The notes under the pieces are model-generated. The model was not told where the DNA came from and ran no database searches. It worked only from the letters and a program-made list of their open reading frames with translations. From IMG/VR virus record IMGVR_UViG_3300027708_000057, positions 1 to 64,000 of that record: a DNA stretch of 64,000 nucleotides, one strand, 5' to 3'. Of the stretch, positions 806-56,791 are shown piece after piece. How positions within the stretch are numbered: the stretch's first letter is position 1; every line of letters begins with the position of its first letter. Source of the stretch: a virus. A program made the position numbers and the translations under genes.

Positions 806-1260
806 AAAAATCAAAGGAAGATATTCTGGCATCTCTTACTGCTAACACTCCTAAGGAAATGCTGCCTATTGAAGTAGTTCCTGAATATATTGGACCAAGC
901 CATGACGATATTATAAAGGATACTGAAGAAGACTATGCATTTGCAAGAGCACATATGAAGAAACTCATAGATGTTTCTGATGAAGCAATTGCTACATTAG
1001 GAGCATTATGTGCCGATTGTGAACAACCAAAATCCTACGAATTTCTCTCAACATTGATAAAAAACTCTGCAGATATTAATAACAATCTCATGATTCTCCA
1101 AAGAGATCGTAAGAAGCTGATTCAAGATAAACCCAAAGAAACTCAAGCCGGTATTAATGTAGGGGGATCAATTACTACAAATAACAATTCTATCTTTGTA
1201 GGATCTACTATTGAATTGCAGAAGTTTTTGAAAGATCAACAAAAAACTATAGATATATGA
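802..1260 (+). CDS. 16: Terminase small subunit (gp16)
   Basis: 152 residues, close to T4 gp16 (164). Shared features are the acidic N-terminus leading to a D-Y-x-F/V-x-R segment, a central helical pair (around residues 45-110) that forms the oligomeric ring in this family, and a C-terminal segment with an NN.S/T.F.GS.IEL pattern. It recognises phage DNA and regulates the large subunit's packaging ATPase and nuclease. It overlaps the gp17 start by ATGA, as expected for a packaging operon. The ATG at 802 lies in an A-rich leader without a Shine-Dalgarno. Confidence 0.88.
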   Translation: MKKSKEDILASLTANTPKEMLPIEVVPEYIGPSHDDIIKDTEEDYAFARAHMKKLIDVSDEAIATLGALCADCEQPKSYEFLSTLIKNSADINNNLMILQRDRKKLIQDKPKETQAGINVGGSITTNNNSIFVGSTIELQKFLKDQQKTIDI

Positions 1261-1670
1261 TTTTTGATAATCAAAAAACTAAGGAAAATGGATATTTGGG
1301 AAATCTCAATGTAAAGAAAAATGGAGTAAATATAGACTTTACATCAGAACAGATTACTGAATATGTTAAATGTATGCAGGATCCTGCATATTTTATCTGT
1401 AACTATGTTAAAATTATAAGTTTGGATGATGGATTAGTTAATTTTAAATTGCGAGGATATCAGGAAAATCTGATTAGCCATATTACTGATAACAAATTTA
1501 TTGCAGTACTAGCGCCGAGACAATCGTCCAAGTGCCAACATATAAATACAATCGTAACCATTCGTAATAAGATGACAGGTTTAATTGAAAAAATAACAGT
1601 TGGAGATTTATATGAAAGAACTAAAATAAATTTGTCACAAGATATTGACAGAGACCAAACCAAACACTAG
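1257..1670 (+). CDS. 17: Terminase large subunit gp17, N-terminal fragment fused to N-half of split intein 1
   Basis: Residues 1-92 match the N-terminal part of T4 gp17 up to the P-loop (ends APRQSSK). Directly after the P-loop lysine a Cys (residue 93) opens an intein N-half of 45 residues that runs to a TAG stop. The polypeptide therefore ends inside the intein, and the rest of gp17 is encoded from 2682. The P-loop glycine seen in T4 (SRQLGKTT) is Ser here (QSSK/STT). The downstream endonuclease gene starts inside this frame's end (1645), so the genes overlap by 26 bases. A functional gp17 would need trans-splicing with the product of 2682-4076. Confidence 0.88.
   Translation: MIFDNQKTKENGYLGNLNVKKNGVNIDFTSEQITEYVKCMQDPAYFICNYVKIISLDDGLVNFKLRGYQENLISHITDNKFIAVLAPRQSSKCQHINTIVTIRNKMTGLIEKITVGDLYERTKINLSQDIDRDQTKH
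1533..1667 (+). other. TerL intein 1, N-half (45 residues)
   Basis: Begins with the catalytic Cys directly after the P-loop lysine. It holds an intein block A-like start (C.......V...NKMTG...K.TVGDLYER) and stops before block B, which lies on the C-half. This is an unusually early split position compared with classical split inteins such as DnaE or gp41-1. Confidence 0.8.
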
Positions 1671-2685
1671 AAAATTACATCCATTATATACTGAATATAT
1701 TTCTCATATAATAGAAACTCATGATAAAGTTTTCGAAAACTTTAAAACTAAAAGTCCTGTAATAAAAATTAGCAGGCTTTTTAATGCGTTAACTAAAGAT
1801 CATGAAGAAGGGGAAGTTGAATGTCAAATATGTAAACTATATAAAAGAAACAGCATAATTCAACACGTTAATATTTCTCATGGATTGTCTGGAAAAGAAT
1901 ATAAGAAACTATATAATGCAGAATTAGTATCTGATGGAATCAAAGAATATTCATCAGAAAAAATCAAAGGTGATAAAAATCCCGGCTGGCAGCATGGTGG
2001 GAGATTGTCTCCATTTTCAGAAAAATTCGTGAAGTATCAAGGAAAACCTAAGGAAGAAATCTCAGAATCTCTTAGAGAATTATATGAAAAAGTCGGATCA
2101 TCGAATAAAGAAAATGGAAACAATAATAAGACTATAATATATTGGACTTCGAGGGGATATTCAGAAGGAGATGCTAAAAAAGAACTTTCAAAACGAGGAA
2201 TTACATTTTCATTGGAAACTTGTATTGAAAAACATGGAGAAGAGATTGGTAGAAAACTATGGTTGGAACGTCAAGAAAAATGGCAAAAAACAATGAAATC
2301 AAAACCAATAGAAGAAATTGAACGAATCAATCGGGATAAATCTACTGGGCGAATGTGTCAGTTATTTAATAGTAATCCAGAAGTGAAACTTATTCCCAGT
2401 TTGTTATATTATGTTCGATTTTTTAATGATGATAATAGTGTTGAGTTTTGGAAAGTTGGAATTACATCACATGATCAAGTATCTAAAAGATTTCCTTCTA
2501 TTAAACGATATGGTTTACAATATGAAATAATATCTACAAATATTAATATGAATTTTTATGATGCATTTAAAGCTGAACAAAATTTTCTCCATAAATATAA
2601 AGAACATAGAATTAATATTGATTATAATGGATTTACAACAACAGAATCATTTTCAATCAATGTCTTGAATAATCAAATATTATGA
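1645..2685 (+). CDS. Putative homing endonuclease gene nested between the halves of split intein 1
   Basis: 346 residues in a different frame from gp17. It starts inside the intein N-half gene and its TGA overlaps the ATG of the C-half gene (2682). The N-terminal third has a C2H2-like segment (C..C...K...IQ-H-VNISH) and a NPGWQHGGRLSPFSEKF stretch of the type seen in phage mobile endonuclease-like proteins. The C-terminal region (YYVRFF...FWKVGIT....RF...EQ..L) resembles a degenerate GIY-YIG nuclease core. A free-standing endonuclease between the halves of a split intein is the fractured-gene arrangement known from environmental phage genomes. The nuclease class is not certain. Confidence 0.65.
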   Translation: MTETKPNTRKLHPLYTEYISHIIETHDKVFENFKTKSPVIKISRLFNALTKDHEEGEVECQICKLYKRNSIIQHVNISHGLSGKEYKKLYNAELVSDGIKEYSSEKIKGDKNPGWQHGGRLSPFSEKFVKYQGKPKEEISESLRELYEKVGSSNKENGNNNKTIIYWTSRGYSEGDAKKELSKRGITFSLETCIEKHGEEIGRKLWLERQEKWQKTMKSKPIEEIERINRDKSTGRMCQLFNSNPEVKLIPSLLYYVRFFNDDNSVEFWKVGITSHDQVSKRFPSIKRYGLQYEIISTNINMNFYDAFKAEQNFLHKYKEHRINIDYNGFTTTESFSINVLNNQIL

Positions 2686-3050
2686 GTCCTTTATTATCTG
2701 AAACAGTTAAAAGAAAGTTCATTGATACTCTTCCTATAGATGATTATGAAATTCTGACAGATACTGGATGGGAAGACCTTACTCATATTAATGTAACTAT
2801 TCCATATGATGAATATGAGATTACATTAAAGGATAATAAATCTATGATATGCGCGGATACTCACATTTTCTTTAATGAAAATACTGAAGAAATCTTCGCA
2901 AAGGATTGTGATAATATCAAAATTCAAACAGTGGACGGGCCAATTCAAGTTGAGTCTGTTATCAAAAATGGTAAACAATCCAATATGTTTGATCTATCTG
3001 TAAATTCCGACAATAACAGATATTATACAAATGATATTTTGAGCCATAAT
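2682..3050 (+). other. TerL intein 1, C-half (123 residues)
   Basis: Starts at the ATG and ends with block G ILSHN followed by Ser as the +1 extein residue. It holds block B (ADTH) and F/G-like segments (YYTNDILSHN). No endonuclease domain is left inside. The endonuclease gene directly upstream is the likely former insert. Confidence 0.8.
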
Positions 3051-4076
3051 AGCACTACTGCTATTGCCTGGTTGTTTTGGTATATCATGTTTAATGCTGA
3101 TAAACAGGTTGGAATTCTTGCAAATAAAGGGGCTATATCTCGTGAAATGCTTGCTAGATTTACCTTAATGTTAGAAAATCTTCCATTCTGGTTACAACCC
3201 GGATGTAAGGTGCTTAATAAGGGTTCTATCAAATTTTCACATAATTCCGAAATTATTGCGGCTGCCACATCATCATCTAGTATTCGTGGAAGAAGTCTTA
3301 ACTGTGTTACAGGTGATACTAAAATATGTATATCAGCCAGAGATGGTATTTATTATATGACTACCATAGAGAATTTATATACAAATTTTTCTTATGGTAT
3401 GAAAGTAAAAACAAAGGAGGGGTTTAAGCCCTTTGATGGTGTATTAGATCAAGGGGTTTCAGAAAAAATATTATCTATATTTCTTAATAATGGGGAAACA
3501 TTAAATTGTACATATGATCATAAACTTTTATTAAATGATGGAATTTCTTTTATACCAGCAAGATTCTTAGAAAATAATGACATCTTATATCCTGATATAC
3601 AAATAATCAATATATCTGAGCATAAACCAGAAAAAGTATATGATCTTATAAATGTAAAAGATACACATTCTTATTTTACAAATGGTATTATTAGTCACAA
3701 TTGTCTAATGCTCGATGAGTTTGCATTCGTAAATAATGCCGACGAATTTTACACAGGTGTTTATCCGGTTATTACATCTGGCACAGATGTAAAAGTAATT
3801 ATTACATCTACACCGAACGGAGTTGGTAATATGTTTTATAAAATTTGGGAAGGAGCCATTCAAGGAACCAATGATTTTAAACCATTTCGTATTAGGTGGC
3901 AAGAAATACCCGGTAGAGATGAGGTGTGGAAAAGACAAACTATTGCAAATACTTCTATTGTAAAATTTTCTCAGGAATTTGAATGCATTTCATTTTCTTC
4001 AGATATTACTATAAAAGATACTACTACTGGTATTATTTCTAATAAGAAAATAGGAGAACTTCATTCCATTTTGTGA
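2682..4076 (+). CDS. 17: gp17 middle fragment with intein 1 C-half, complete intein 2, and intein 3 N-half
   Basis: 464 residues. Residues 1-123 are the C-half of intein 1 (block B-like CADTHIFF, end ILSHN). Then 84 residues of gp17 ATPase domain (STTAIAWLFW ... SSIRGRSLN). Then a 133-residue mini-intein (starts CVTGDTKI, ends ISHN) inserted just before the Walker B strand CLMLDEFAF. Then 94 residues of extein including the coupling motif TSTPNG. It ends in 30 residues of a third intein starting CISFSSDI. The frame stops in TGA overlapping the GTG start at 4073. The matching T4 gp17 segments lie in the same order, so only the inteins and breaks are foreign. Confidence 0.88.
   Translation: MSPLLSETVKRKFIDTLPIDDYEILTDTGWEDLTHINVTIPYDEYEITLKDNKSMICADTHIFFNENTEEIFAKDCDNIKIQTVDGPIQVESVIKNGKQSNMFDLSVNSDNNRYYTNDILSHNSTTAIAWLFWYIMFNADKQVGILANKGAISREMLARFTLMLENLPFWLQPGCKVLNKGSIKFSHNSEIIAAATSSSSIRGRSLNCVTGDTKICISARDGIYYMTTIENLYTNFSYGMKVKTKEGFKPFDGVLDQGVSEKILSIFLNNGETLNCTYDHKLLLNDGISFIPARFLENNDILYPDIQIINISEHKPEKVYDLINVKDTHSYFTNGIISHNCLMLDEFAFVNNADEFYTGVYPVITSGTDVKVIITSTPNGVGNMFYKIWEGAIQGTNDFKPFRIRWQEIPGRDEVWKRQTIANTSIVKFSQEFECISFSSDITIKDTTTGIISNKKIGELHSIL
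3303..3701 (+). other. TerL intein 2 (contiguous mini-intein, 133 residues)
   Basis: Cys1 after RGRSLN, block A CVTGDTKICI, block B CTYDHKLLL, block F/G VKDTHSYFTNGIISHN, Cys as +1. No endonuclease domain. It interrupts gp17 immediately before the Walker B aspartate/glutamate strand. Confidence 0.88.
3984..4073 (+). other. TerL intein 3, N-half (30 residues)
   Basis: Starts with Cys after KFSQEFE and ends at a TGA after IGELHSIL. Both the insertion point (EFE/C ... N/CEF.GS) and the early split match the atypically split AceL-TerL intein known from an Antarctic lake metagenome, whose N-half is about 25 residues. Confidence 0.75.
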
Positions 4077-4399
4077 AACCTAACTTTAAATACGAAATTC
4101 TTACTACGAAAGGTTTCAAGAAGTTTGATGGGATTTCTAAACAATCTTCATCAAAAACATATACTATTATTGGAGAAACTTTAGAATCTATTGTTGCAAC
4201 TGAAAATCATAAATTTCAATGCTCCGATGATTCATGGGTGTCAGTTCTGGATTTGCTTACTACACATAGAAACTCTATTCTCAAAAATATCGGAGAAATT
4301 GTTGATATATCTCCAAATAATATTACAGAAGATGTATATGATTTGATTAATGTCGCTGATACTAAATCCTTCATTGCATCTGGTTTTATATCTCATAAT
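4073..4399 (+). other. TerL intein 3, C-half (109 residues)
   Basis: Starts at a GTG that overlaps the stop of the preceding frame. It holds block B (TENHKF) and ends FIASGFISHN before Cys+1. The size is close to the C-half of AceL-TerL (about 104 residues). Confidence 0.75.
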
Positions 4400-5203
4400 T
4401 GTGAATTCATCGGATCTGCTCAAACTTTAATTTCTTCTAATATTCTTCTAGGTCTTACTTCCCGAGAACCTATTAAGACTCAATATGAAATTAAATATTA
4501 TATTGAACCGTTGGAAGGGCATGTTTATATAATGACAGTTGATGTTAGTAAAGGCCGAGGGCAAGATTATTCAACATTCTCCATTTTTGATATTACAGAA
4601 CAACCCTTTAAACAAGTTTGCACATTTCGAGATAATATGATTTCTCCGTTAATGTTTCCCGAATATATTATCCGAGGAGCTAAATTATATAATAATGCTA
4701 TTGTTATTATTGAAAATAATGATGTAGGACAAGTTGTTTGTAATTCTGTATATTATGATTATGAATATGATAATCTATTTGTACAATCTTCTCTTAAGGC
4801 TTCAGGTGTTGGAGTTACTATGACTAAGAGGGTCAAACGCGTAGGTTGTTCTAACTTGAAAGATTTGCTTGAACAAGGAAAGTTAGAAGTATATGATGCA
4901 AATACAATAATTGAATTGACTTCATTTGAACCTAAGGGTGAAAGTTATGCAGCATCAGGGTCTAATCATGATGATATGGTCATGAATTTAGTATTATTTG
5001 CATGGTTTGTTTCAACAGAAGCTTTTGGAAATATATCATCCATTGATTTAAAATCATTATTGTATGCCGATAAGATTAAGGAAATGGAAGAGAATGATTT
5101 GCCATTCGCCATAATGACTTCTGAATATAACGAATATTCCAGCCCATCGATGGAGTATTATGAGAAAGCTAAGGCCGAACTTGAAGAGTGGGGTCACTTA
5201 TAA
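4073..5203 (+). CDS. 17: gp17 C-terminal fragment: intein 3 C-half plus nuclease domain
   Basis: 376 residues: 109 of intein then 267 of gp17. The extein carries the RNase H-like packaging nuclease. Its acidic triad is visible as VDVSKGRGQDYS, IENNDVG and SNHDDMVMNL, matching T4 D401, D458 and D542. The start is taken as GTG at 4073 because it overlaps the previous stop. A frameshift in a contiguous intein is the alternative, since removing two bases near 4070 would join the frames. Together the extein pieces give about 537 residues, compared with 610 in T4. Confidence 0.85.
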   Translation: MKPNFKYEILTTKGFKKFDGISKQSSSKTYTIIGETLESIVATENHKFQCSDDSWVSVLDLLTTHRNSILKNIGEIVDISPNNITEDVYDLINVADTKSFIASGFISHNCEFIGSAQTLISSNILLGLTSREPIKTQYEIKYYIEPLEGHVYIMTVDVSKGRGQDYSTFSIFDITEQPFKQVCTFRDNMISPLMFPEYIIRGAKLYNNAIVIIENNDVGQVVCNSVYYDYEYDNLFVQSSLKASGVGVTMTKRVKRVGCSNLKDLLEQGKLEVYDANTIIELTSFEPKGESYAASGSNHDDMVMNLVLFAWFVSTEAFGNISSIDLKSLLYADKIKEMEENDLPFAIMTSEYNEYSSPSMEYYEKAKAELEEWGHL

Positions 5204-7124: not shown

Positions 7125-7132
7125 TATAAATA
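7125..7132 (+). promoter_or_regulatory. Late promoter TATAAATA upstream of gp19
   Basis: Exact TATAAATA ending 8 bases before the ATG at 7141. Transcription from it would give an almost leaderless message. Confidence 0.7.
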
Positions 7133-7746: not shown

Positions 7747-10700
7747 ATGAAATTATTTGGATTTGAAATAAGTAAAAAGATTGATAAAAGGTCCTCTGAA
7801 AGTGGAGGTCTTGAGATTGATAATACTATTAAGTCATTTGCTATACCGTCGCAAAATGACGGTACTATGTTATTGCCCTCATCATCTGCTGCAGGGTATT
7901 ATGGTCAAATCCTTGATATTGATGGCACCTCCTTTGTTAATGAAAAGGATCTTATTCTTAAATATAGAGCGGCGGCAGGTCAGCCGGAATGTGATACTGC
8001 TATTGCTGATATTACCAATGCTGCAATTATCTCAGACTCAAAGGGAAGCCCAGTCAAGTTAGATCTTGATGTAGTTGATTTACCTCAAAAAGTTAAAGAA
8101 CGAATTTTTGAGGAATTTAATATTATTCTTCAACTACTTGATTTCAATTTTACGGGTTATGATATTTTTCGGAGATGGTATATTGATGGAAAAGTGTATT
8201 TCCATCTACAAATCGATTCATCAAAACCAAAGGACGGAATTAAAGGTATAGTACAAATTGATCCTTTAAAGATCAAGAAAATTAAAGAAATATCTACTAC
8301 TATTGATAGAGTATCTGGCATCAAATCAAATAAGATTACAGCAGAATACTTTTTATATTCCGATGATTTTTCCAGTAGTACAACCGGTGTTAAAATTGAT
8401 CCAAATGCTATTGTATATGTACCTTCAGGGATTCTAGATGAATCTGGGAAAATCTCGATTTCGTATTTACACAAATCCATTAAGTTGGTAAATCAATTGC
8501 AAAAGATGGAAGATTCATTGGTAATCTATCGTGTAGCAAGAGCACCAGAACGCAGAATCTTCTATATCGACGTAGGAAATCTTCCTAAAGGTAAAGCTGA
8601 AGAGTATGTTCAGGGTCTCATGGCGAAATACCGGAATAAATTAGTGTATGACGCTTGCTTGGATATGAATACTTTGATACCTCTTCTTGATGGGCGAACT
8701 TTATCATTAAGAGATATACAAACAGCATTCGAAAATGGTGAGAGATTATGGGCGTATTCATGTGATCCTAATACTGGTAAATTTGTCCCAGGTTTAATTA
8801 CAAGTGCAGGAGTTACTAAATTTAATCAAGATGTTATTAGATTGACTCTTGACAATGGTAAGACTATTACTTGTACTCACGATCATAAATTTCCTGTTTG
8901 GAATAAGGGTAAAGTTGAAGCTAAAGATTTAATTATTGGCGATTCAATGATTCCTTTTTATACACGAGAAGAAAAAATAGTATCTAAACATTCCGGTTAT
9001 CATCAACATTTCGATAATTCTGATAAAAAATGGATATTTACACATAGGGCAGTTTCTATCTGGAAAGATAAAAATTTATTAGATAACGAGTGGGTTTATG
9101 ATACATCTGTAGTAATGGAACAAAAAGGAACTATTCATCATAAGAATTATAATAGATATGATAATTCTCCCGAGAATCTAGTCAAAATGAATAGTAAAGA
9201 TCATTTTAAATATCATAAGCAACATAATGGTCTTGCTGGTAAAATTGGAGGTAAAGTTACAGCCGATAGAATTAGAGCAAAGGGAGATAAATTCTTTCCT
9301 AATTTAGATCCGATTAAAATGCGGCTAATTCATGCTGAGTGTGGAAAAATAGCTGGGCGGTTTGCAGTAGAGAATAAAATAGGAATTCATGGATTATCAC
9401 ATGAAGAAATATGTGATAATGCTAAATTAGGAAGTGATGCTTTATTAGCAAAATTTGCTGATCCTGCTTTTTATGCATCTATATGTGCAATACAAAAGGC
9501 CAGTTGGAATAATAGAGACGATCGTAGATTAGCAGCCGCCGAAAGAGGTAAAACCTTATCTATGGAGCATTTTCAAAATATGAGTGTTCTTGGTAATGGA
9601 TCTCGTTGGGGTTCTAATAAATCCGAAGAAAATAGAAAAGCTCTATCTGAATCACAACAGATAATGTATCCTAAGAATATATCATCAATAATCGAAGATG
9701 CAGTTCGAACAAATAAATCCGTTTCCGATATACTTATCCATATAAATGCTCATATTGATCATAATGAATGGACACATCTGAATGATAAAAAGATTATTAA
9801 ACTTCGTAAATCTATATCACCATTTACACATAAAGACCTTAGGCGTTTATGTAAAACTGCTAGCTTTAATACAATTAAAGAATATAAAGAGGCTCTACTT
9901 TATAAAAATCATAAGATTATTAATATAGAATATCTAGATGAAAAAATTGATGTTGGCACACTTGGTATTGATAAAGATGAAATTTATCATAACTATCACA
10001 CATTTGCTCTAGACGCTGGAATATATACATGCAATTCTACAGGCGACATACGAGATGACAGAAAATCAATGTCAATTTTGGAAGACTTTTTCCTTCCCAG
10101 AAGAGATGGGTGTATTTCTCTTGATACTAAGATTAAAATACTAGATGGCAGAGACACACCTCTAATTGATTTAATTCAAGATTATAATTCAGGTATTCAG
10201 AATTGGGTATATTCAGTATCTCCTGATGGTACTATAGTTCCTGGTAAAATCTCTTGGGCTGGTATAACAAGAAGAAATACTGAAGTTGTTAAAGTTTATC
10301 TCGATAATGGAGAAGTTGTTACAACAACTCCAGATCATAAATTCATTCTTCGTAATGGTGAAAAAGTTGAAGCTAAAGAATTAGTAGTTGGTAGTTCTCT
10401 TGCAACATATAATACTGAAGATACTAATAATCTTCATATAGTTGAAACTATTGAGTTTGTTCCTAATAAGATTGATGTTGGTACTCTTACTATTGATGAA
10501 CATCATGAACATCATGACTATCATAACTTCGCTTTAAGTTCTGGTATATTTGTAATGAATTCCAAAGGTACAGAAATCACCACACTTCCCGGCGGAGAGA
10601 ATCTTTCCGAAATTGCTGATATTAATTTTTTCCAAAAGAAGTTATATCGGTCTCTTAATGTACCATCTGCTCGACTTGAAGCTGATTCATTATTTGTATC

Positions 10701-11235
10701 TGGTCGTTCATCGGAAATTTCAAGAGAGGAAGTAAAGTTTCAAAAGTTTATTTCAAGACTTCGCAAAAAGTTTTCCATAATGTTTTCAGATATGTTGCGA
10801 GTACAGTGTATCCTTAAAGGGATTATCACTTTAAAAGATTGGCCAGCAATTCGAGAATGTATGGGCGTTGACTTTATTGAAGATAATTTTTATTCCGAAC
10901 TTAAAGATTCTGAGATTCTCAGAAATAGATTAGAAGTACTCGAATTGATTCAACCTAGTATAGGAATATATTATTCTAACAAATGGATTCGTTCAAATGT
11001 TCTGAATATGTCTGAGCATGATGTTATTCGTATGCAAGAAGAAATGGATGAAGAGAAAGCAGCTGAAGAAAAAACTCCAACAGAAGAAGAACCTTCCAGC
11101 GAGGAAGAAAAATCTGTTCCAGAAGAAGAACCAGAAGCCGAAGTTCCTGCATCTGAGGAAGAAGAACCATCTCCAGAAGGAGAAGAAGAGAAGCCTGGAA
11201 AAGAATGGTCAATTAATATGAATAAGAGAGCATAA
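7747..11235 (+). CDS. 20: Portal protein (gp20) containing two inteins
   Basis: 1162 residues, of which about 552 remain after removing two inteins (T4 gp20 is 524). The exteins match gp20 closely around the joins: LVYDA/STGDIRDDRK...LEDFFLPRRDG/SKGTEITTLPGGENL. Intein A (residues 304-763) carries an HNH endonuclease; intein B (residues 789-938) is small. The C-terminus is a long acidic tail rich in EEE and PEEE runs, longer than in T4. The portal is the dodecameric ring at the capsid vertex through which DNA is packaged. The ATG follows TATATAAT by only a few bases. Confidence 0.92.
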   Translation: MKLFGFEISKKIDKRSSESGGLEIDNTIKSFAIPSQNDGTMLLPSSSAAGYYGQILDIDGTSFVNEKDLILKYRAAAGQPECDTAIADITNAAIISDSKGSPVKLDLDVVDLPQKVKERIFEEFNIILQLLDFNFTGYDIFRRWYIDGKVYFHLQIDSSKPKDGIKGIVQIDPLKIKKIKEISTTIDRVSGIKSNKITAEYFLYSDDFSSSTTGVKIDPNAIVYVPSGILDESGKISISYLHKSIKLVNQLQKMEDSLVIYRVARAPERRIFYIDVGNLPKGKAEEYVQGLMAKYRNKLVYDACLDMNTLIPLLDGRTLSLRDIQTAFENGERLWAYSCDPNTGKFVPGLITSAGVTKFNQDVIRLTLDNGKTITCTHDHKFPVWNKGKVEAKDLIIGDSMIPFYTREEKIVSKHSGYHQHFDNSDKKWIFTHRAVSIWKDKNLLDNEWVYDTSVVMEQKGTIHHKNYNRYDNSPENLVKMNSKDHFKYHKQHNGLAGKIGGKVTADRIRAKGDKFFPNLDPIKMRLIHAECGKIAGRFAVENKIGIHGLSHEEICDNAKLGSDALLAKFADPAFYASICAIQKASWNNRDDRRLAAAERGKTLSMEHFQNMSVLGNGSRWGSNKSEENRKALSESQQIMYPKNISSIIEDAVRTNKSVSDILIHINAHIDHNEWTHLNDKKIIKLRKSISPFTHKDLRRLCKTASFNTIKEYKEALLYKNHKIINIEYLDEKIDVGTLGIDKDEIYHNYHTFALDAGIYTCNSTGDIRDDRKSMSILEDFFLPRRDGCISLDTKIKILDGRDTPLIDLIQDYNSGIQNWVYSVSPDGTIVPGKISWAGITRRNTEVVKVYLDNGEVVTTTPDHKFILRNGEKVEAKELVVGSSLATYNTEDTNNLHIVETIEFVPNKIDVGTLTIDEHHEHHDYHNFALSSGIFVMNSKGTEITTLPGGENLSEIADINFFQKKLYRSLNVPSARLEADSLFVSGRSSEISREEVKFQKFISRLRKKFSIMFSDMLRVQCILKGIITLKDWPAIRECMGVDFIEDNFYSELKDSEILRNRLEVLELIQPSIGIYYSNKWIRSNVLNMSEHDVIRMQEEMDEEKAAEEKTPTEEEPSSEEEKSVPEEEPEAEVPASEEEEPSPEGEEEKPGKEWSINMNKRA
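8656..10035 (+). other. Portal intein A with HNH homing endonuclease domain (460 residues)
   Basis: Cys1 after LVYDA and a final Cys-Asn before Ser+1. Splicing block B is CTHDHKFPV. The HNH motif is clear (IHHKNYNRYDNSPENL...HFKYHK), followed by repeated helical segments and a region near the end (FTHKDLRRLCKTASFNTIKE) that looks like a DNA-binding helix-turn-helix. It is full length and has no stop, so it may be an active mobile element. Confidence 0.88.
10111..10560 (+). other. Portal intein B (mini-intein, 150 residues)
   Basis: Starts CISLDTKIKI after PRRDG and ends FVMN before Ser+1, with block B TTPDHKFIL. No endonuclease. Its splicing blocks resemble those of intein A (both have a .IDVGTL.ID....H.YH.FAL segment), so one may derive from the other. 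Only 25 extein residues separate the two. Confidence 0.87.
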
Positions 11236-11261: not shown

Positions 11262-11269
11262 TATAAATA
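11262..11269 (+). promoter_or_regulatory. Late promoter TATAAATA before prohead core genes
   Basis: Exact consensus, five bases before the ATG at 11275. Confidence 0.7.
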
Positions 11270-13176: not shown

Positions 13177-13184
13177 TATAAATA
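13177..13184 (+). promoter_or_regulatory. Late promoter TATAAATA (proximal) before gp21
   Basis: Exact consensus, five bases before the ATG at 13190. Confidence 0.65.
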
Positions 13185-17135: not shown

Positions 17136-17143
17136 TATAAATA
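17136..17143 (+). promoter_or_regulatory. Late promoter TATAAATA before repeat protein gene
   Basis: Exact consensus seven bases before the ATG at 17151, making this a late gene. Confidence 0.7.
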
Positions 17144-17150
17144 ATACCAT

Positions 17151-19004
17151 ATGATATCATTTCGCCAATTTATTTCCGAAGATGTAGCTTCTCAAGAACG
17201 TCAAGCTCTTAACATTCTTAATAGAAACCATATTAAAGATCCTGAAGACGTTTTTAATGATCTTAAAGCTATTACCGAACCATATCAGGCCGGTGATAAT
17301 ATAACAAGACCTGCAAGAAATCAAGCTCATCTTCCTAAACTTGCTGAATTTCTTTCGAAAGGAAAAATTAAGATTAACACTTTAAAGGCCTATTATGATA
17401 GGTATATTAAGAATCCAAAATTAAATAAGACGGCAATAGTTAACTTTAAAGACTTTAGAGAGTTTGAACAATTTGTTGATGAAAATGAGGTAGTTAAGAT
17501 GTCAGATCATGATTCTAGAAATAATAAAATTTCCGAAAAGAATGCTATCTATCATGATAGCGAAATAGATGTTTATCTTGGAGACACCAAGCAAGCCTGT
17601 ATGCTTTATGGGCAAGGATCTAAGTTTAATTTATGTATTTCCAGAAATGATTCTAGTAATCTATTTCATGATTATAGATGGAAACATGAACTTACTACTT
17701 ACTTTGTATACTTTAAAGAAGCCGGGGTTAATAATCCTAATTTTATTATCGTAGATGCTTCTAAAAAATCTCCTAAAACGTTTAGCTATAATATAATCAA
17801 ACCTAATTCTGATAAAAATATATCAAAGGAAAATCTTATTACGAAATTCCCGCAATTAAAAACCGCAATGGAAAAGGGTATCTTTAAACATAAGAAAATT
17901 GAAGGAGATGAAAAGAAATATTATATAAAATATCATGGTAAATCTATTACAGATTTTTCAACTCTAGATGATAGAATTAACTTTATTGAAATGGGGGAAG
18001 AAATTGAAGGTAATCAATGGTCTAAATTAGGAGATATGGTTCCTAAACTGTTACCTTATTATATTGAAATCGGACATGATATTCCAAAGGAAGTACTTGA
18101 TAAGAATACATCTTTTAAAAAACGATATGAACAAAAGTTACAACAAAGAGTTCAAATGAATCTTGATGATAATACTGATCTTGATGATTATACAAAAGAT
18201 GAACTAGAATATGCTTTAAGAAATAATGATAGGGTAAAAGATAAGATAAAGCAGATAAGCAAACTAGAAGAACTTAAAATAAGAAACGAACTAGTTAATG
18301 GGATATATAAAGGAGATATAAGAATTAAATCTAAATATATATTACCAAATCTATCTGATATTGTAGTTAGTGGAGATTTTTATTGTCCTTATAATAAACT
18401 TACATCTTTAGAAGGAGCTCCTAAAGAAGTTGGTGGAGATTTTAATTGTTCTAGTAATAAACTTACATCTTTAGAAGGAGCTCCTAAAGAAGTTGGTGGA
18501 GATTTTTATTGTGATAATAATAACCTTACATCTTTAGAAGGAGCTCCTAAAGAAGTTGGTGGAGATTTTTATTGTTCTAGTAATAAACTTACATCTTTAG
18601 AAGGGGGTCCAAAAGAAGTTGGTGGATATTTTAATTGTGATAATAATAACCTTACATCTTTAGAAGGGGGTCCAAAAGAAGTTGGTGGATATTTTAATTG
18701 TTCTGATAATAAACTTACTTCTTTAGAAGGATCTCCGCAAAAAGTTGGTGGATATTTTAATTGTTCTGATAATAAACTTACTTCTTTAGAAGGATCTCCG
18801 CAAAAAGTTGGTGGATATTTTAATTGTTCTGATAATAAACTTACATCTTTAGAAGGAGCTCCTAAAGAAGTTGGTGGAGATTTTAATTGTTCTGATAATA
18901 AACTTACATCTTTAGAAGGAGCTCCTAAAGAAGTTGGTAGAGATTTTTATTGTTCTAATAATCTAGTCAAATTAGACTATAAAGCATGGTTGACAAAACA
19001 ATAA
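17151..19004 (+). CDS. Candidate internal head (ejected) protein with leucine-rich-like repeats (copy B)
   Basis: 617 residues. The first ten (MISFRQFISE) have the form of the T4 capsid-targeting sequence (M-x-T-(F/Y)-x-x-F-I-x-E) that directs internal proteins and Alt into the prohead and is cut off by gp21 after the Glu. Residues ~130-230 form a globular domain (DSEIDVYLGDTKQAC...GSKFNLCISR...TTYFVYF) also known from other phage proteins of unknown function. Residues ~415-605 are nine 21-residue repeats. A late promoter and the position next to the capsid gene fit a packaged protein. The delivered function is unknown; a role in the infected cell is inference. Confidence 0.7.
   Translation: MISFRQFISEDVASQERQALNILNRNHIKDPEDVFNDLKAITEPYQAGDNITRPARNQAHLPKLAEFLSKGKIKINTLKAYYDRYIKNPKLNKTAIVNFKDFREFEQFVDENEVVKMSDHDSRNNKISEKNAIYHDSEIDVYLGDTKQACMLYGQGSKFNLCISRNDSSNLFHDYRWKHELTTYFVYFKEAGVNNPNFIIVDASKKSPKTFSYNIIKPNSDKNISKENLITKFPQLKTAMEKGIFKHKKIEGDEKKYYIKYHGKSITDFSTLDDRINFIEMGEEIEGNQWSKLGDMVPKLLPYYIEIGHDIPKEVLDKNTSFKKRYEQKLQQRVQMNLDDNTDLDDYTKDELEYALRNNDRVKDKIKQISKLEELKIRNELVNGIYKGDIRIKSKYILPNLSDIVVSGDFYCPYNKLTSLEGAPKEVGGDFNCSSNKLTSLEGAPKEVGGDFYCDNNNLTSLEGAPKEVGGDFYCSSNKLTSLEGGPKEVGGYFNCDNNNLTSLEGGPKEVGGYFNCSDNKLTSLEGSPQKVGGYFNCSDNKLTSLEGSPQKVGGYFNCSDNKLTSLEGAPKEVGGDFNCSDNKLTSLEGAPKEVGRDFYCSNNLVKLDYKAWLTKQ
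18399..18962 (+). repeat. Nine tandem 63-bp coding repeats (copy B)
   Basis: Same unit as at 121-684. Neighbouring units 6 and 7 are identical at the protein level, a sign of recent unit duplication. Confidence 0.9.
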
Positions 19005-21054: not shown

Positions 21055-22128
21055 TTATGCATACGCCATGATTAGCCGAGTAAGATCATCATCTTTAATA
21101 GAAACTCCGGCAGCGACAGCACCACCGGCAATAGCAAGACCTCGGGATAATTTGCGAAGATTGGCGGATTGTTTAGAGTTGCCTTTACGAAGTAATTCAA
21201 CTACATGTTTACGTTGAGCTAATGTTAATTGTAGACCATCTTCTAACTCCATATCTCCTACAATCTTATCCATGAAGTCATAAATCTCTTCTACTGTTGG
21301 ATCAATGTCAATGATAAATGCTCTTGTACGAAGAGCTTTATCTGGATCTAATTTATCAAGAGACATATTAGAAATAAATATAATCTTTCCAGTAAATTCA
21401 AAATATCTAGGAATCATCCCAGCATCAAGAATTTCATCATCTGTCATTGTATCTGGATCAACGACGTTCTTACCCATCTTATTCCATACGAGCTTGCGTT
21501 TTTTCTTAGTATCTGTTGCAGCTTTTAGAATATTACGTCCTTCTGTATCCCCAAAGACATCATCTGAATCATCGAATAGAATAATTTTATCCTTATATCT
21601 GAATAACAGTGAATATAGACCAGCAGCCGAAGCAGAACCTGTATTTTTGAAATACCCCTTACCATCCTTAAGCCCCATGGAATGTAGGACTTTTTCAGTT
21701 GTGTGAGTTTTACCGGTATTGTGATGACAAATACCATTTGCTGTAAAATATAGATGATCGGCTGAATCAATTTCAACATCATAATAATCCGAAACAGAAT
21801 CTGAAATTATTATATTAATAATTTTCACATAAGATCCATCTTGCGTCATCACTTCATCCCCAATTACTAAATCTCTTACTTGTAAACTTCCTTTACTTGT
21901 AGTTAATAGATGTACATCCGAACATTTAATAATTCGATCATCTTCAAATTTAACCAATGTATCTTTACCAGGTTTAATAACAAATGATACAATCTTTGAA
22001 CTTCCAGAAGGAGTATCGATTTTTATATTTAAGGAAGAAATATCATAAAATTTGAAATGTTCTAGATAATCGCCATACAATTTTTCTGTAAGGTCTTTAA
22101 TATCTTGTATTGTGTTAAGTTTTTTCAT
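21055..22128 (-). CDS. AAA ATPase C-terminal fragment preceded by 137-residue intein C-half
   Basis: 357 residues. Residues 1-137 are an intein C-half (block B CSDVHLL, block F/G ADHLYFTANGICHHN). The extein starts exactly at TGKTHT, the second half of a P-loop whose first half (FVSGVGG) ends the upstream gene's extein. Walker B is KIILFDDSDD, and a sensor-like strand is GKIIFISNM. Joined extein is about 501 residues. The biological role of the ATPase is not known to me. Confidence 0.85.
   Translation of the reverse strand: MKKLNTIQDIKDLTEKLYGDYLEHFKFYDISSLNIKIDTPSGSSKIVSFVIKPGKDTLVKFEDDRIIKCSDVHLLTTSKGSLQVRDLVIGDEVMTQDGSYVKIINIIISDSVSDYYDVEIDSADHLYFTANGICHHNTGKTHTTEKVLHSMGLKDGKGYFKNTGSASAAGLYSLLFRYKDKIILFDDSDDVFGDTEGRNILKAATDTKKKRKLVWNKMGKNVVDPDTMTDDEILDAGMIPRYFEFTGKIIFISNMSLDKLDPDKALRTRAFIIDIDPTVEEIYDFMDKIVGDMELEDGLQLTLAQRKHVVELLRKGNSKQSANLRKLSRGLAIAGGAVAAGVSIKDDDLTRLIMAYA
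21718..22128 (-). other. ATPase split intein, C-half (137 residues)
   Basis: Covers everything from block A's end onward, including blocks B, F and G, ending CHHN before Thr+1. His-His-Asn at the end is the normal intein C-terminus. Confidence 0.82.
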
Positions 22129-22157
22129 TGATTAAATTTGATTTGGTCTCTATGATG

Positions 22158-22289
22158 TTATTTATATATTCCTAACAATCCTTCATTACATCTTCTAATA
22201 AAGAATTTTAGTACTTCAACCCATCCGAATATAACAATAAAAGAAACAAATAATATAAAGATATTTAATACTTTATTCCATAGTAGCAT
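22158..22289 (-). CDS. 43-residue single-pass membrane peptide between the ATPase halves
   Basis: A frame starting MLLWNKVLNIFILF, inside the end of the upstream ATPase gene but in another frame, fills the gap between the two ATPase gene halves. It has one strongly hydrophobic helix (residues ~8-23) followed by a basic stretch. Its position mirrors that of the endonuclease gene in the terminase split intein. No homologue recognised; it could be chance. Confidence 0.4.
   Translation of the reverse strand: MLLWNKVLNIFILFVSFIVIFGWVEVLKFFIRRCNEGLLGIYK
22159..22166 (-). promoter_or_regulatory. TATAAATA upstream of the ATPase C-fragment gene
   Basis: Exact late-type consensus on the - strand, about 30 bases before the start at 22128. 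The two ATPase halves could thus be transcribed separately. Confidence 0.5.
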
Positions 22290-23157
22290 TAATTTCCGTA
22301 TCTGCTGATAAACAACCCCCAACACCAGATACAAATATTGCGTTAGACGCCCCTGATATTGTTAATTTAAGGAGATGTTCTAAGTCTGCCAACTGTTGTT
22401 CAAACGTAAGTTTATCAATCTTAGTTTCAAGAGTATCAATATCTTGAATATCTTCATAAGTTTCTTTTGAAGAACCTTTAGTAATCTTACCTGTAACGAT
22501 ACCAATAGAATCTGTAATATCATCAAGATCCTTCATAATATTTTGAAGTTGTTTTGGTGTGCCTGTCCATTCATAATCAACACCATTCTTAACGATTTCC
22601 TTTGAATATGTTGTAAGAAGATAATCAAAAATCTTAATTCCAGGTGATGCATATTTAGCTCTTACATCCCCTTTGCTTGCGCCTGGACCAGAAATCATAT
22701 CGAGTATACCAGAAAGAATATCTTTTGGTGTATCTCCTCTAGCTTCATTCAGAGGAATTCCATCAGGCATTGTATTAATTTCTCCAGTATAACCGTTAGC
22801 TGATATAATATCTGCAATAACAGGAAGTGTCTTTATAAGCGATACTTCTTTATCAAACTCTATATGATATGGTCTGGCACTTTCTCCATTCCAGAAATCA
22901 ACAGATTCTAAACCACTTAATCCGATAGAATTGGATAACGACCAATTGAATCGGATAGATTTACTATCTTTAGTACTATAAAACCGAATACCTCGACCCT
23001 TACCAGACTCGTTTTGATATACTTCGACCCCGGCAGATTTAAAGAATAATAATCCGGTTTTCTTTTGAAGATATTTTGTAATGATCAGACCAGCCTTCTC
23101 AGCTGAACTTGAAGTCATTGCTTCGACAATACATGGTTTGAAACTTAAATTGCTCAT
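22273..23157 (-). CDS. AAA ATPase N-terminal fragment ending in a 13-residue intein N-half
   Basis: 294 residues. The extein (281 residues) has an N-terminal domain, a linker, and ends ASNAIFVSGVGG, the first half of a P-loop. It is followed by CLSADTEINATME and a stop. CLSADT is a standard intein block A, and the matching C-half plus the rest of the P-loop (TGKTHT) is in the next gene. Thirteen residues is among the shortest natural intein N-halves; VidaL, at about 16, is a known comparison. Confidence 0.85.
   Translation of the reverse strand: MSNLSFKPCIVEAMTSSSAEKAGLIITKYLQKKTGLLFFKSAGVEVYQNESGKGRGIRFYSTKDSKSIRFNWSLSNSIGLSGLESVDFWNGESARPYHIEFDKEVSLIKTLPVIADIISANGYTGEINTMPDGIPLNEARGDTPKDILSGILDMISGPGASKGDVRAKYASPGIKIFDYLLTTYSKEIVKNGVDYEWTGTPKQLQNIMKDLDDITDSIGIVTGKITKGSSKETYEDIQDIDTLETKIDKLTFEQQLADLEHLLKLTISGASNAIFVSGVGGCLSADTEINATME
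22276..22314 (-). other. ATPase split intein, N-half (13 residues)
   Basis: Cys1 directly after the P-loop GVGG, then LSADTEI, which fits block A. The stop TAA follows 12 codons later. All other blocks lie on the C-half encoded at 21718-22128. Confidence 0.8.
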
Positions 23158-23165
23158 ATATGTTA

Positions 23166-23173
23166 TATTTATA
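23166..23173 (-). promoter_or_regulatory. TATAAATA upstream of ATPase N-fragment gene
   Basis: Exact consensus eight bases before the ATG at 23157. Confidence 0.55.
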
Positions 23174-56783: not shown

Positions 56784-56791
56784 TATTTATA
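56784..56791 (-). promoter_or_regulatory. TATAAATA upstream of the Ntn-hydrolase gene
   Basis: Exact consensus six bases before the start at 56777. Confidence 0.5.

What the first reader, a model, noticed from the sequence alone, without database searches (positions are those of the whole stretch)
21055..23157. AAA ATPase split inside its P-loop by an intein with a 13-residue N-half
The upstream gene ends FVSGVGG + CLSADTEINATME, and the downstream gene has a 137-residue intein C-half ending CHHN directly before TGKTHT. The joined extein restores GVGGTGKT exactly. Thirteen residues would be among the shortest natural intein N-halves; VidaL, at about 16, is the nearest known example. It could be both a switch on the ATPase and a very compact tag.
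Basis: partly seen in the sequence, partly recalled or inferred. Interest (0 to 1): 0.93.

Follow-up and report, generated by a model that had tools for sequence, protein, structure and literature searches.

The report
Phage ATPase with tiny split intein
A T4-like phage makes one of its ATPases as two separate proteins, broken in the middle of the ATP-binding loop, and the two are predicted to be stitched together by a split intein whose first half is only 13 amino acids long, two shorter than the shortest natural one described in the papers I could read.

Summary
On the minus strand, gene 23157..22273 ends FVSGVGG|CLSADTEINATME*. Gene 22128..21055 opens with a 137-residue intein C-half ending ICHHN|TGKTHT. 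All 75 related loci with a readable empty site encode the same ATPase (T4 NrdC.10/phrog_1250, AAA+ fold) in one piece, reading G[KSR]GG|VGKT. They fix the insertion site exactly and show that position +1 changed from V to the required nucleophile T. The window region is identical in two further IMG/VR contigs and differs by one base in a third, so it is not an assembly fault.

A second virus (L004, C-half 81% identical) has its own 13-residue N-half, CLSADTAIVATQD*. It also has a free-standing 417-aa endonuclease-like gene between the halves, the known 'fractured gene' layout. The window's 144-bp gap keeps a decayed relic of that gene's 3' end. Joined, the 13+137 residues match the intein N-terminal model end to end, so nothing is missing. 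pN/pS is 0.20 on the C-half.

Most likely this is a working class 1 atypically split (S1-site) intein. Its N-half is shorter than the shortest natural one described (PolB16 OarG, 15 aa; VidaL 16). Splicing itself is inferred. The 'switch' idea has no support. The same phage carries at least five other inteins, two split.

The parts
22273..23157 (-). N-gene: N-extein of NrdC.10-like AAA+ ATPase (281 aa) + 13-aa intein N-half + stop
   Evidence: homologous to the N-terminal part of the intein-less proteins
22315..22326 (-). First half of the P-loop, GVGG (last four N-extein residues)
22276..22314 (-). Intein N-half (Int-N), 13 aa, CLSADTEINATME; Cys1 nucleophile, block A
   Evidence: L004 equivalent CLSADTAIVATQD
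22129..22272 (-). 144-bp gap between the two genes; site of the endonuclease-like gene in L004
22121..22210 (-). Decayed relic of the 3' end of the free-standing endonuclease-like gene (60% identity to L004 ORF residues 387-416, with two stops)
   Evidence: E 9.3e-6; DNA alignment score 42 against a maximum of 35 in 500 shuffles
21718..22128 (-). Intein C-half (Int-C), 137 aa, MKKLNTIQ...HLYFTANGICHHN; block B-like CSDVH, block F YYDVEIDSADH, block G HHN
21706..21717 (-). Second half of the P-loop, TGKT; T is the +1 nucleophile (V in 75 of 75 intein-less loci)
21055..21717 (-). C-extein: AAA+ ATPase core after the P-loop (phrog_1250 / T4 NrdC.10 family) and stop
21055..22128 (-). C-gene: Int-C + C-extein
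22159..22166 (-). TATAAATA box about 30 nt before the C-gene start, T4-late-promoter-like; also present in L004. Weak: box number in the window is not above chance

Best explanation
The two genes encode one AAA+ ATPase (T4 NrdC.10 family) broken between the fourth and fifth residues of its Walker A loop (GVGG|TGKT) by a naturally, atypically split class 1 mini-intein (13 + 137 = 150 aa). The split lies in the loop between strand beta2 and helix alpha1, the 'S1' site. Shown: the two halves, the exact insertion site, a second natural member, completeness of the joined intein, and purifying selection. Inferred: the 13-residue N-half fills the first strands of the HINT fold formed by the C-half; Cys1 attacks the preceding Gly, the chain passes to Thr+1, the terminal Asn (137 of the C-half, 150 of the joined intein) cyclises, and the exteins join as GVGG-TGKT, which creates the ATP site; neither gene product alone holds a complete P-loop. 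Origin (partly shown, partly inferred): a free-standing GIY-YIG-like homing endonuclease gene sits in the break in the relative L004, and the window virus has lost all but about 90 nt of it, so here the split intein outlived its endonuclease.
For: The site G[KSR]GG|VGKT is uninterrupted in 75 of 75 intein-less loci, and the +1 residue is T only in the two intein carriers. L004 has its own 13-aa N-half and a 417-aa ORF in the break. The joined sequence matches TIGR01445 over 1-83/83 at E 9.6e-4 (window) and over 1-82/83 at 1.3e-4 (L004); neither window gene alone matches. PDB sequence matches of the C-half include CatC, gp41-1 and VidaL. Foldseek ranks 1-18 for the C-half model are all inteins. 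pN/pS is 0.20 for Int-C and 0.22 for the C-extein. The same region occurs in four contigs in all. The endonuclease relic is detected in the window. The model of the intact host protein has 194 PDB matches at E<=0.001, those listed being AAA+ family proteins.
Against: No splicing data exist. Profile scores are below curated cut-offs (20.1 and 22.8 bits against 24.5), so the intein is divergent. The C-half model is poor (pLDDT 65, TM about 0.35). Only two distinct viruses carry it. On 13 codons the N-half pN/pS (0.41) is weak evidence of constraint. The endonuclease call rests on homology to the window's terminase-associated ORF, whose own GIY-YIG-type (MUG113) match is below the curated cut-off (E 0.0023).
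Confidence: 0.9

Rival explanations
1. The intein is a dying relic: after loss of the endonuclease the halves no longer splice and the ATPase is dead in this virus.
For: The endonuclease-like gene is decayed to a relic in the window; many intein-less viruses exist; the N-extein evolves faster than the C-extein (pN/pS 0.46 against 0.22).
Against: Int-C and C-extein are under clear purifying selection (0.20, 0.22); both halves, catalytic residues and P-loop residues are intact; no stops or frameshifts in four contigs.
Confidence: 0.06
2. The two gene products work as a non-covalent two-subunit ATPase and the intein residues are not used.
For: Split proteins can sometimes reassemble without ligation (general knowledge; no tool result).
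Against: The break is inside the P-loop between GG and xGKT, where a contiguous loop is needed; the +1 residue was changed to the intein nucleophile T; intein motifs are kept under selection.
Confidence: 0.02
3. Assembly or sequencing artefact: part of a longer N-half has been lost and the true N-half is longer.
For: Metagenomic assembly; no isolate exists.
Against: The same sequence was assembled in four contigs, one with a SNP; L004 has its own 13-aa N-half with a different stop codon; the joined sequence covers the whole intein N-terminal model with no gap needed.
Confidence: 0.01
4. A regulated intein: trans-splicing acts as a switch that delays ATPase activation, for example until late expression or a temperature or redox cue. 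(An addition to the best explanation rather than its opposite.)
For: The P-loop cannot form before splicing; a TATAAATA box precedes each half.
Against: The number of TATAAATA boxes in the window is not above chance (18 against 13.3 expected); most relatives have no intein, so the ATPase does not need such a switch.
Confidence: 0.07

Closest known systems
PolB16 OarG split intein (sheep gut metagenome; PMC10189870)
   Same: Natural, atypically split close to the N-terminus (S1 site), very short N-half (15 aa), long C-half
   Different: Ser1/Ser+1 against Cys1/Thr+1 here; in a DNA polymerase; 15 + 168 aa against 13 + 137 aa
VidaL split intein (PDB 6vgv; N-half 16 aa according to PMC13014065)
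   Same: Natural S1 split, cysteine-dependent; C-half weakly similar in sequence (phmmer E 0.039). The aligned construct ends in ...SGK, which looks like a P-loop too (inference)
   Different: N-half 16 aa; Ser at the aligned +1 position; a different host protein as far as I know
AceL TerL / GOS TerL / CatC-type atypically split inteins
   Same: Short N-half and long C-half; CatC is the best PDB sequence match of the C-half (E 4.2e-5)
   Different: S2 split after helix alpha1 (25-37 aa N-half); terminase host
Fractured genes with free-standing homing endonucleases (Dassa et al. 2009, known by citation; AceL NrdHF with a GIY-YIG-type gene, PMC7891396)
   Same: Host gene broken by a split intein with an endonuclease gene in the break, as seen in L004
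   Different: AceL NrdHF is canonically split 98/48 aa and class 3; in the window the endonuclease is lost
Artificial S1 splits such as Ssp DnaX S1 and M86 (11-aa N-half; PMC11766414, PMC13014065)
   Same: Show that an 11-residue N-half can be enough
   Different: Engineered, not natural

Membership tests
Class 1 intein (HINT fold) | Cys/Ser at position 1 and block A motif | tested here: met
   CLSADT in both members; TIGR01445 model matched from position 1
Class 1 intein (HINT fold) | Block B [T/S]xxH | tested here: met
   CSDVH / CSDKH, invariant S and H; same SxxH in gp41-1 (alignment)
Class 1 intein (HINT fold) | C-terminal block with His-Asn and +1 Cys/Ser/Thr | tested here: met
   HHN|T in both members
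Class 1 intein (HINT fold) | HINT fold | tested here: inconclusive
   Model of the C-half alone is low confidence (pLDDT 65), yet Foldseek ranks 1-18 are all inteins
Class 1 intein (HINT fold) | Profile score above the curated cut-off of a library model (a detection aid, not a defining property) | tested here: inconclusive
   Below cut-off: TIGR01445 20.1 and 22.8 bits against 24.5; PF14890 17.1 and 18.5 bits against 35.8. Divergent, but the whole N-terminal model is covered
Class 1 intein (HINT fold) | Protein splicing activity | not testable with these tools
   Needs biochemistry
Naturally atypically split intein (S1 site) | Two separate genes, break in the beta2-alpha1 loop, no residues missing | tested here: met
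   Break after residue 13; helix alpha1 is residues 7-18 of the C-half in the (low-confidence) model; full model coverage when joined
Fractured gene | Free-standing endonuclease gene between the halves | tested here: met
   Met in L004 (417-aa ORF); in the window only a relic remains
GIY-YIG homing endonuclease (L004 ORF) | GIY-YIG domain match | tested here: inconclusive
   No direct Pfam hit to this superfamily; homologous (E 2e-22) to window ORF 1645-2685, which weakly matches MUG113 (E 0.0023)
T4 NrdC.10 / phrog_1250 AAA ATPase (host protein) | Sequence match and AAA+ fold with Walker A | tested here: met
   phrog_1250 E 5.5e-23 for the C-extein; 20 of 20 relatives match AAA_16 (first member below its cut-off); Foldseek finds AAA+ proteins

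The most novel reading that the evidence does not exclude
The shortest natural intein N-half known (13 aa), functional and conserved in two viruses, kept after loss of its homing endonuclease, in a phage that must run three mutually orthogonal split inteins at once (one here, two in the terminase).
Probability: 0.7. Interest if true: 0.62.

Novelty: new member of a known kind. Interest (0 to 1): 0.52.

Why it matters
Short N-halves can be made as synthetic peptides and disturb a tagged protein least; natural pairs tend to behave better than engineered ones. A natural 13-residue N-half would beat the described record of 15 and comes with a ready-made natural variant pair (window and L004) for comparison. 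The pair of loci also catches a fractured gene before and after loss of its endonuclease, so it makes testable whether a split intein persists once it is no longer mobile.

Tried and rejected
Searched for further carriers of this intein with the two-member C-half alignment: only the window virus and L004. A DNA scan for HNTGKTHT added one contig, L095, which is a chance match inside an unrelated ORF that looks like an HNH-type endonuclease. A scan for GG-C[L/F]SADT gave phage tail-tip-like proteins with an unrelated Hint domain and chance matches, no further short N-half. The endonuclease search gave only L004 itself and one weak relative. The N-gene has no match in named phages. The promoter idea (TATAAATA boxes) was not above chance in number. 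Considered and rejected: hidden extra N-half residues in the gap. The gap's 3' part is endonuclease relic, the joined model needs no extra residues, and L004 stops at the same codon. The Dassa 2009 paper is not held in the library, so it is cited by reference only.

Full report
WHAT IS THERE. On the minus strand two neighbouring genes lie 144 bp apart. Gene 23157..22273 (294 aa) ends FVSGVGG-CLSADTEINATME-TAA. Gene 22128..21055 (357 aa) starts MKKLNTIQDIKDLTEKLYG..., and its first 137 residues end ANGICHHN directly before TGKTHT. The second gene has no alternative upstream start, since its frame closes one codon before the ATG. The same 2103 bp are found unchanged in L001 and L002 and with one base changed in L003, so the arrangement is not an assembly fault.

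THE HOST PROTEIN. The part after the intein matches phrog_1250 at E 5.5e-23 and T4-like NrdC.10 proteins. NrdC.10 has been noted as a weak match to the AAA ATPase family in T4-like phages (PMC1524935). Of the 80 loci fetched from IMG/VR, 75 (L005-L079, not all independent viruses) hold the same protein as one gene of about 512-520 aa (a few cut by contig ends) with an uninterrupted P-loop, GKGGVGKT, GSGGVGKT or GRGGVGKT. A model of the family (pLDDT 73) puts this loop between strand 288-292 and helix 296-309. Foldseek gives 194 PDB matches at E<=0.001; those listed are AAA+ family proteins such as NorQ, proteasomal ATPases and p97. The neighbours are UvsX- and gp41-like genes, and the helicase is about 55% identical to those of cyanomyoviruses, so this is a T4-like myovirus.

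THE INSERTION SITE. The empty sites define the junction as GG|VGKT. In the window and in L004 it is GG|TGKT. The +1 residue is V in all 75 intein-less loci and T in both carriers, as class 1 splicing demands (Cys, Ser or Thr). The joined loop GVGGTGKT is a canonical Walker A but not letter-for-letter that of the relatives.

A SECOND MEMBER. L004 (contig IMGVR_UViG_3300010885_023196) is 58% identical over the first gene and 81% over the intein C-half. Its first gene ends FVAGRGG-CLSADTAIVATQD-TAG, again exactly 13 intein residues. Between the halves lies a 417-aa ORF (L004 3761-5014) that overlaps the start of the second gene. This ORF is homologous (BLASTP 2e-22) to the window ORF 1645-2685, which itself sits in the break of a split-intein terminase and weakly matches the GIY-YIG-type family MUG113 (E 0.0023). 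This is the 'fractured gene' layout known from split inteins, including AceL NrdHF with a GIY-YIG-type gene (PMC7891396).

THE RELIC. The window's gap aligns over 103 columns with the 3' end of the L004 ORF. The score is 42, against a maximum of 35 in 500 dinucleotide-preserving shuffles. A translated search of the genome finds the relic at 22121-22210 (60% identity to residues 387-416, E 9.3e-6, two stops inside). The simplest reading is that the window virus once had the endonuclease gene and lost it, while both intein halves stayed.

IS THE INTEIN COMPLETE? Neither gene alone matches the intein N-terminal model. The two joined match TIGR01445 over its whole length, 1-83 of 83, at E 9.6e-4, and L004 over 1-82 at 1.3e-4. 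Scores are just under the curated cut-off (20.1 and 22.8 against 24.5 bits), so the intein is divergent. The C-half's best PDB sequence matches are the engineered intein CatC (E 4.2e-5), gp41-1 (0.022) and VidaL (0.039). A model of the C-half is poor (pLDDT 65), but the top 18 Foldseek matches are all inteins. In that model helix 7-18 is the first helix of the fold, so the break falls in the loop before it, the S1 position of the literature.

SELECTION. Between the window and L004, pN/pS is 0.20 for the C-half, 0.22 for the C-extein, 0.46 for the N-extein and 0.41 for the 13 codons of the N-half, the last too short to weigh much. C1, L2, S3, A4, D5, T6, I8, A10 and T11 are identical while several codons differ silently.

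MECHANISM. Shown: the parts, the site, the completeness, the second member, the selection and the relic. Inferred from established intein chemistry: association of the 13-mer with the C-half, an N-S shift at Cys1, transfer to Thr+1, cyclisation of the terminal Asn (137 of the C-half, 150 of the joined intein) and joining of the exteins. A complete P-loop exists only after splicing. That does not make splicing a regulatory switch; most relatives live without an intein and nothing here points to control.

COMPARISON. A 2026 paper gives natural atypical N-halves as 15-37 aa and calls the 15 aa of PolB16 OarG record-short; VidaL has 16 and artificial M86 11 (PMC13014065; PMC10189870). I found no natural N-half below 15 in the papers searched, but subscription journals and unannotated metagenomes were not searched exhaustively. 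The finding is a new member of a known kind with an extreme value, in what appears to be a new host protein.

VERDICT. Confirmed and well supported; splicing untested. Interest 0.52: a useful and neat case for the intein field rather than a new kind of system. The wider genome, with three split inteins in two genes and at least six inteins in all, adds interest.

Noticed in passing
window 1257-5203 (+): The large terminase (gp17) of the same phage is broken into three ORFs by two split inteins and also holds one contiguous intein. ORF 1257-1670 ends PRQSSK|CQHINTI... (N-half about 45 aa, Walker A). ORF 2682-4076 starts with a C-half ...LSHN|STTAIAW (matches gp41-1, E 1.5e-7), carries a contiguous intein RSLN|CVTGDT...SHN|CLMLDE beside Walker B, and ends SQEFE|CISFSS... 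(N-half about 30 aa). ORF 4073-5203 starts with a C-half ...ISHN|CEFIGSAQTL (matches CatC, E 7e-4).
   Followed up: partly
window 1645-2685 (+): Free-standing ORF with a weak MUG113 (GIY-YIG type) match in the first break of the terminase; homologous to the ORF in the L004 break.
   Followed up: partly
window 7747-11235 (+): Portal protein gp20 of 1162 aa carries two contiguous inteins, the first with an HNH_3-like endonuclease region.
   Followed up: no
window, e.g. 7125-7132, 11262-11269, 13177-13184, 17136-17143, 23166-23173, 56784-56791: TATAAATA boxes (T4-late-promoter-like) often lie only 6-9 nt before start codons with no Shine-Dalgarno motif, which could mean leaderless or nearly leaderless late messages; the total count is not above chance.
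   Followed up: partly
L096, L098-L102, L104-L108: Phage tail-tip-like proteins carry a Hint domain in a poly-glycine stretch, GGGGG|CFSADT...KVHN|GGGGGK, with Gly instead of a nucleophile at +1, so an intein-like domain that may not splice in the usual way.
   Followed up: no
window 17151-19004 (+): 617-aa protein ending in about ten near-identical repeats of the type NKLTSLEGAPKEVGGDFxC (leucine-rich-repeat-like).
   Followed up: no
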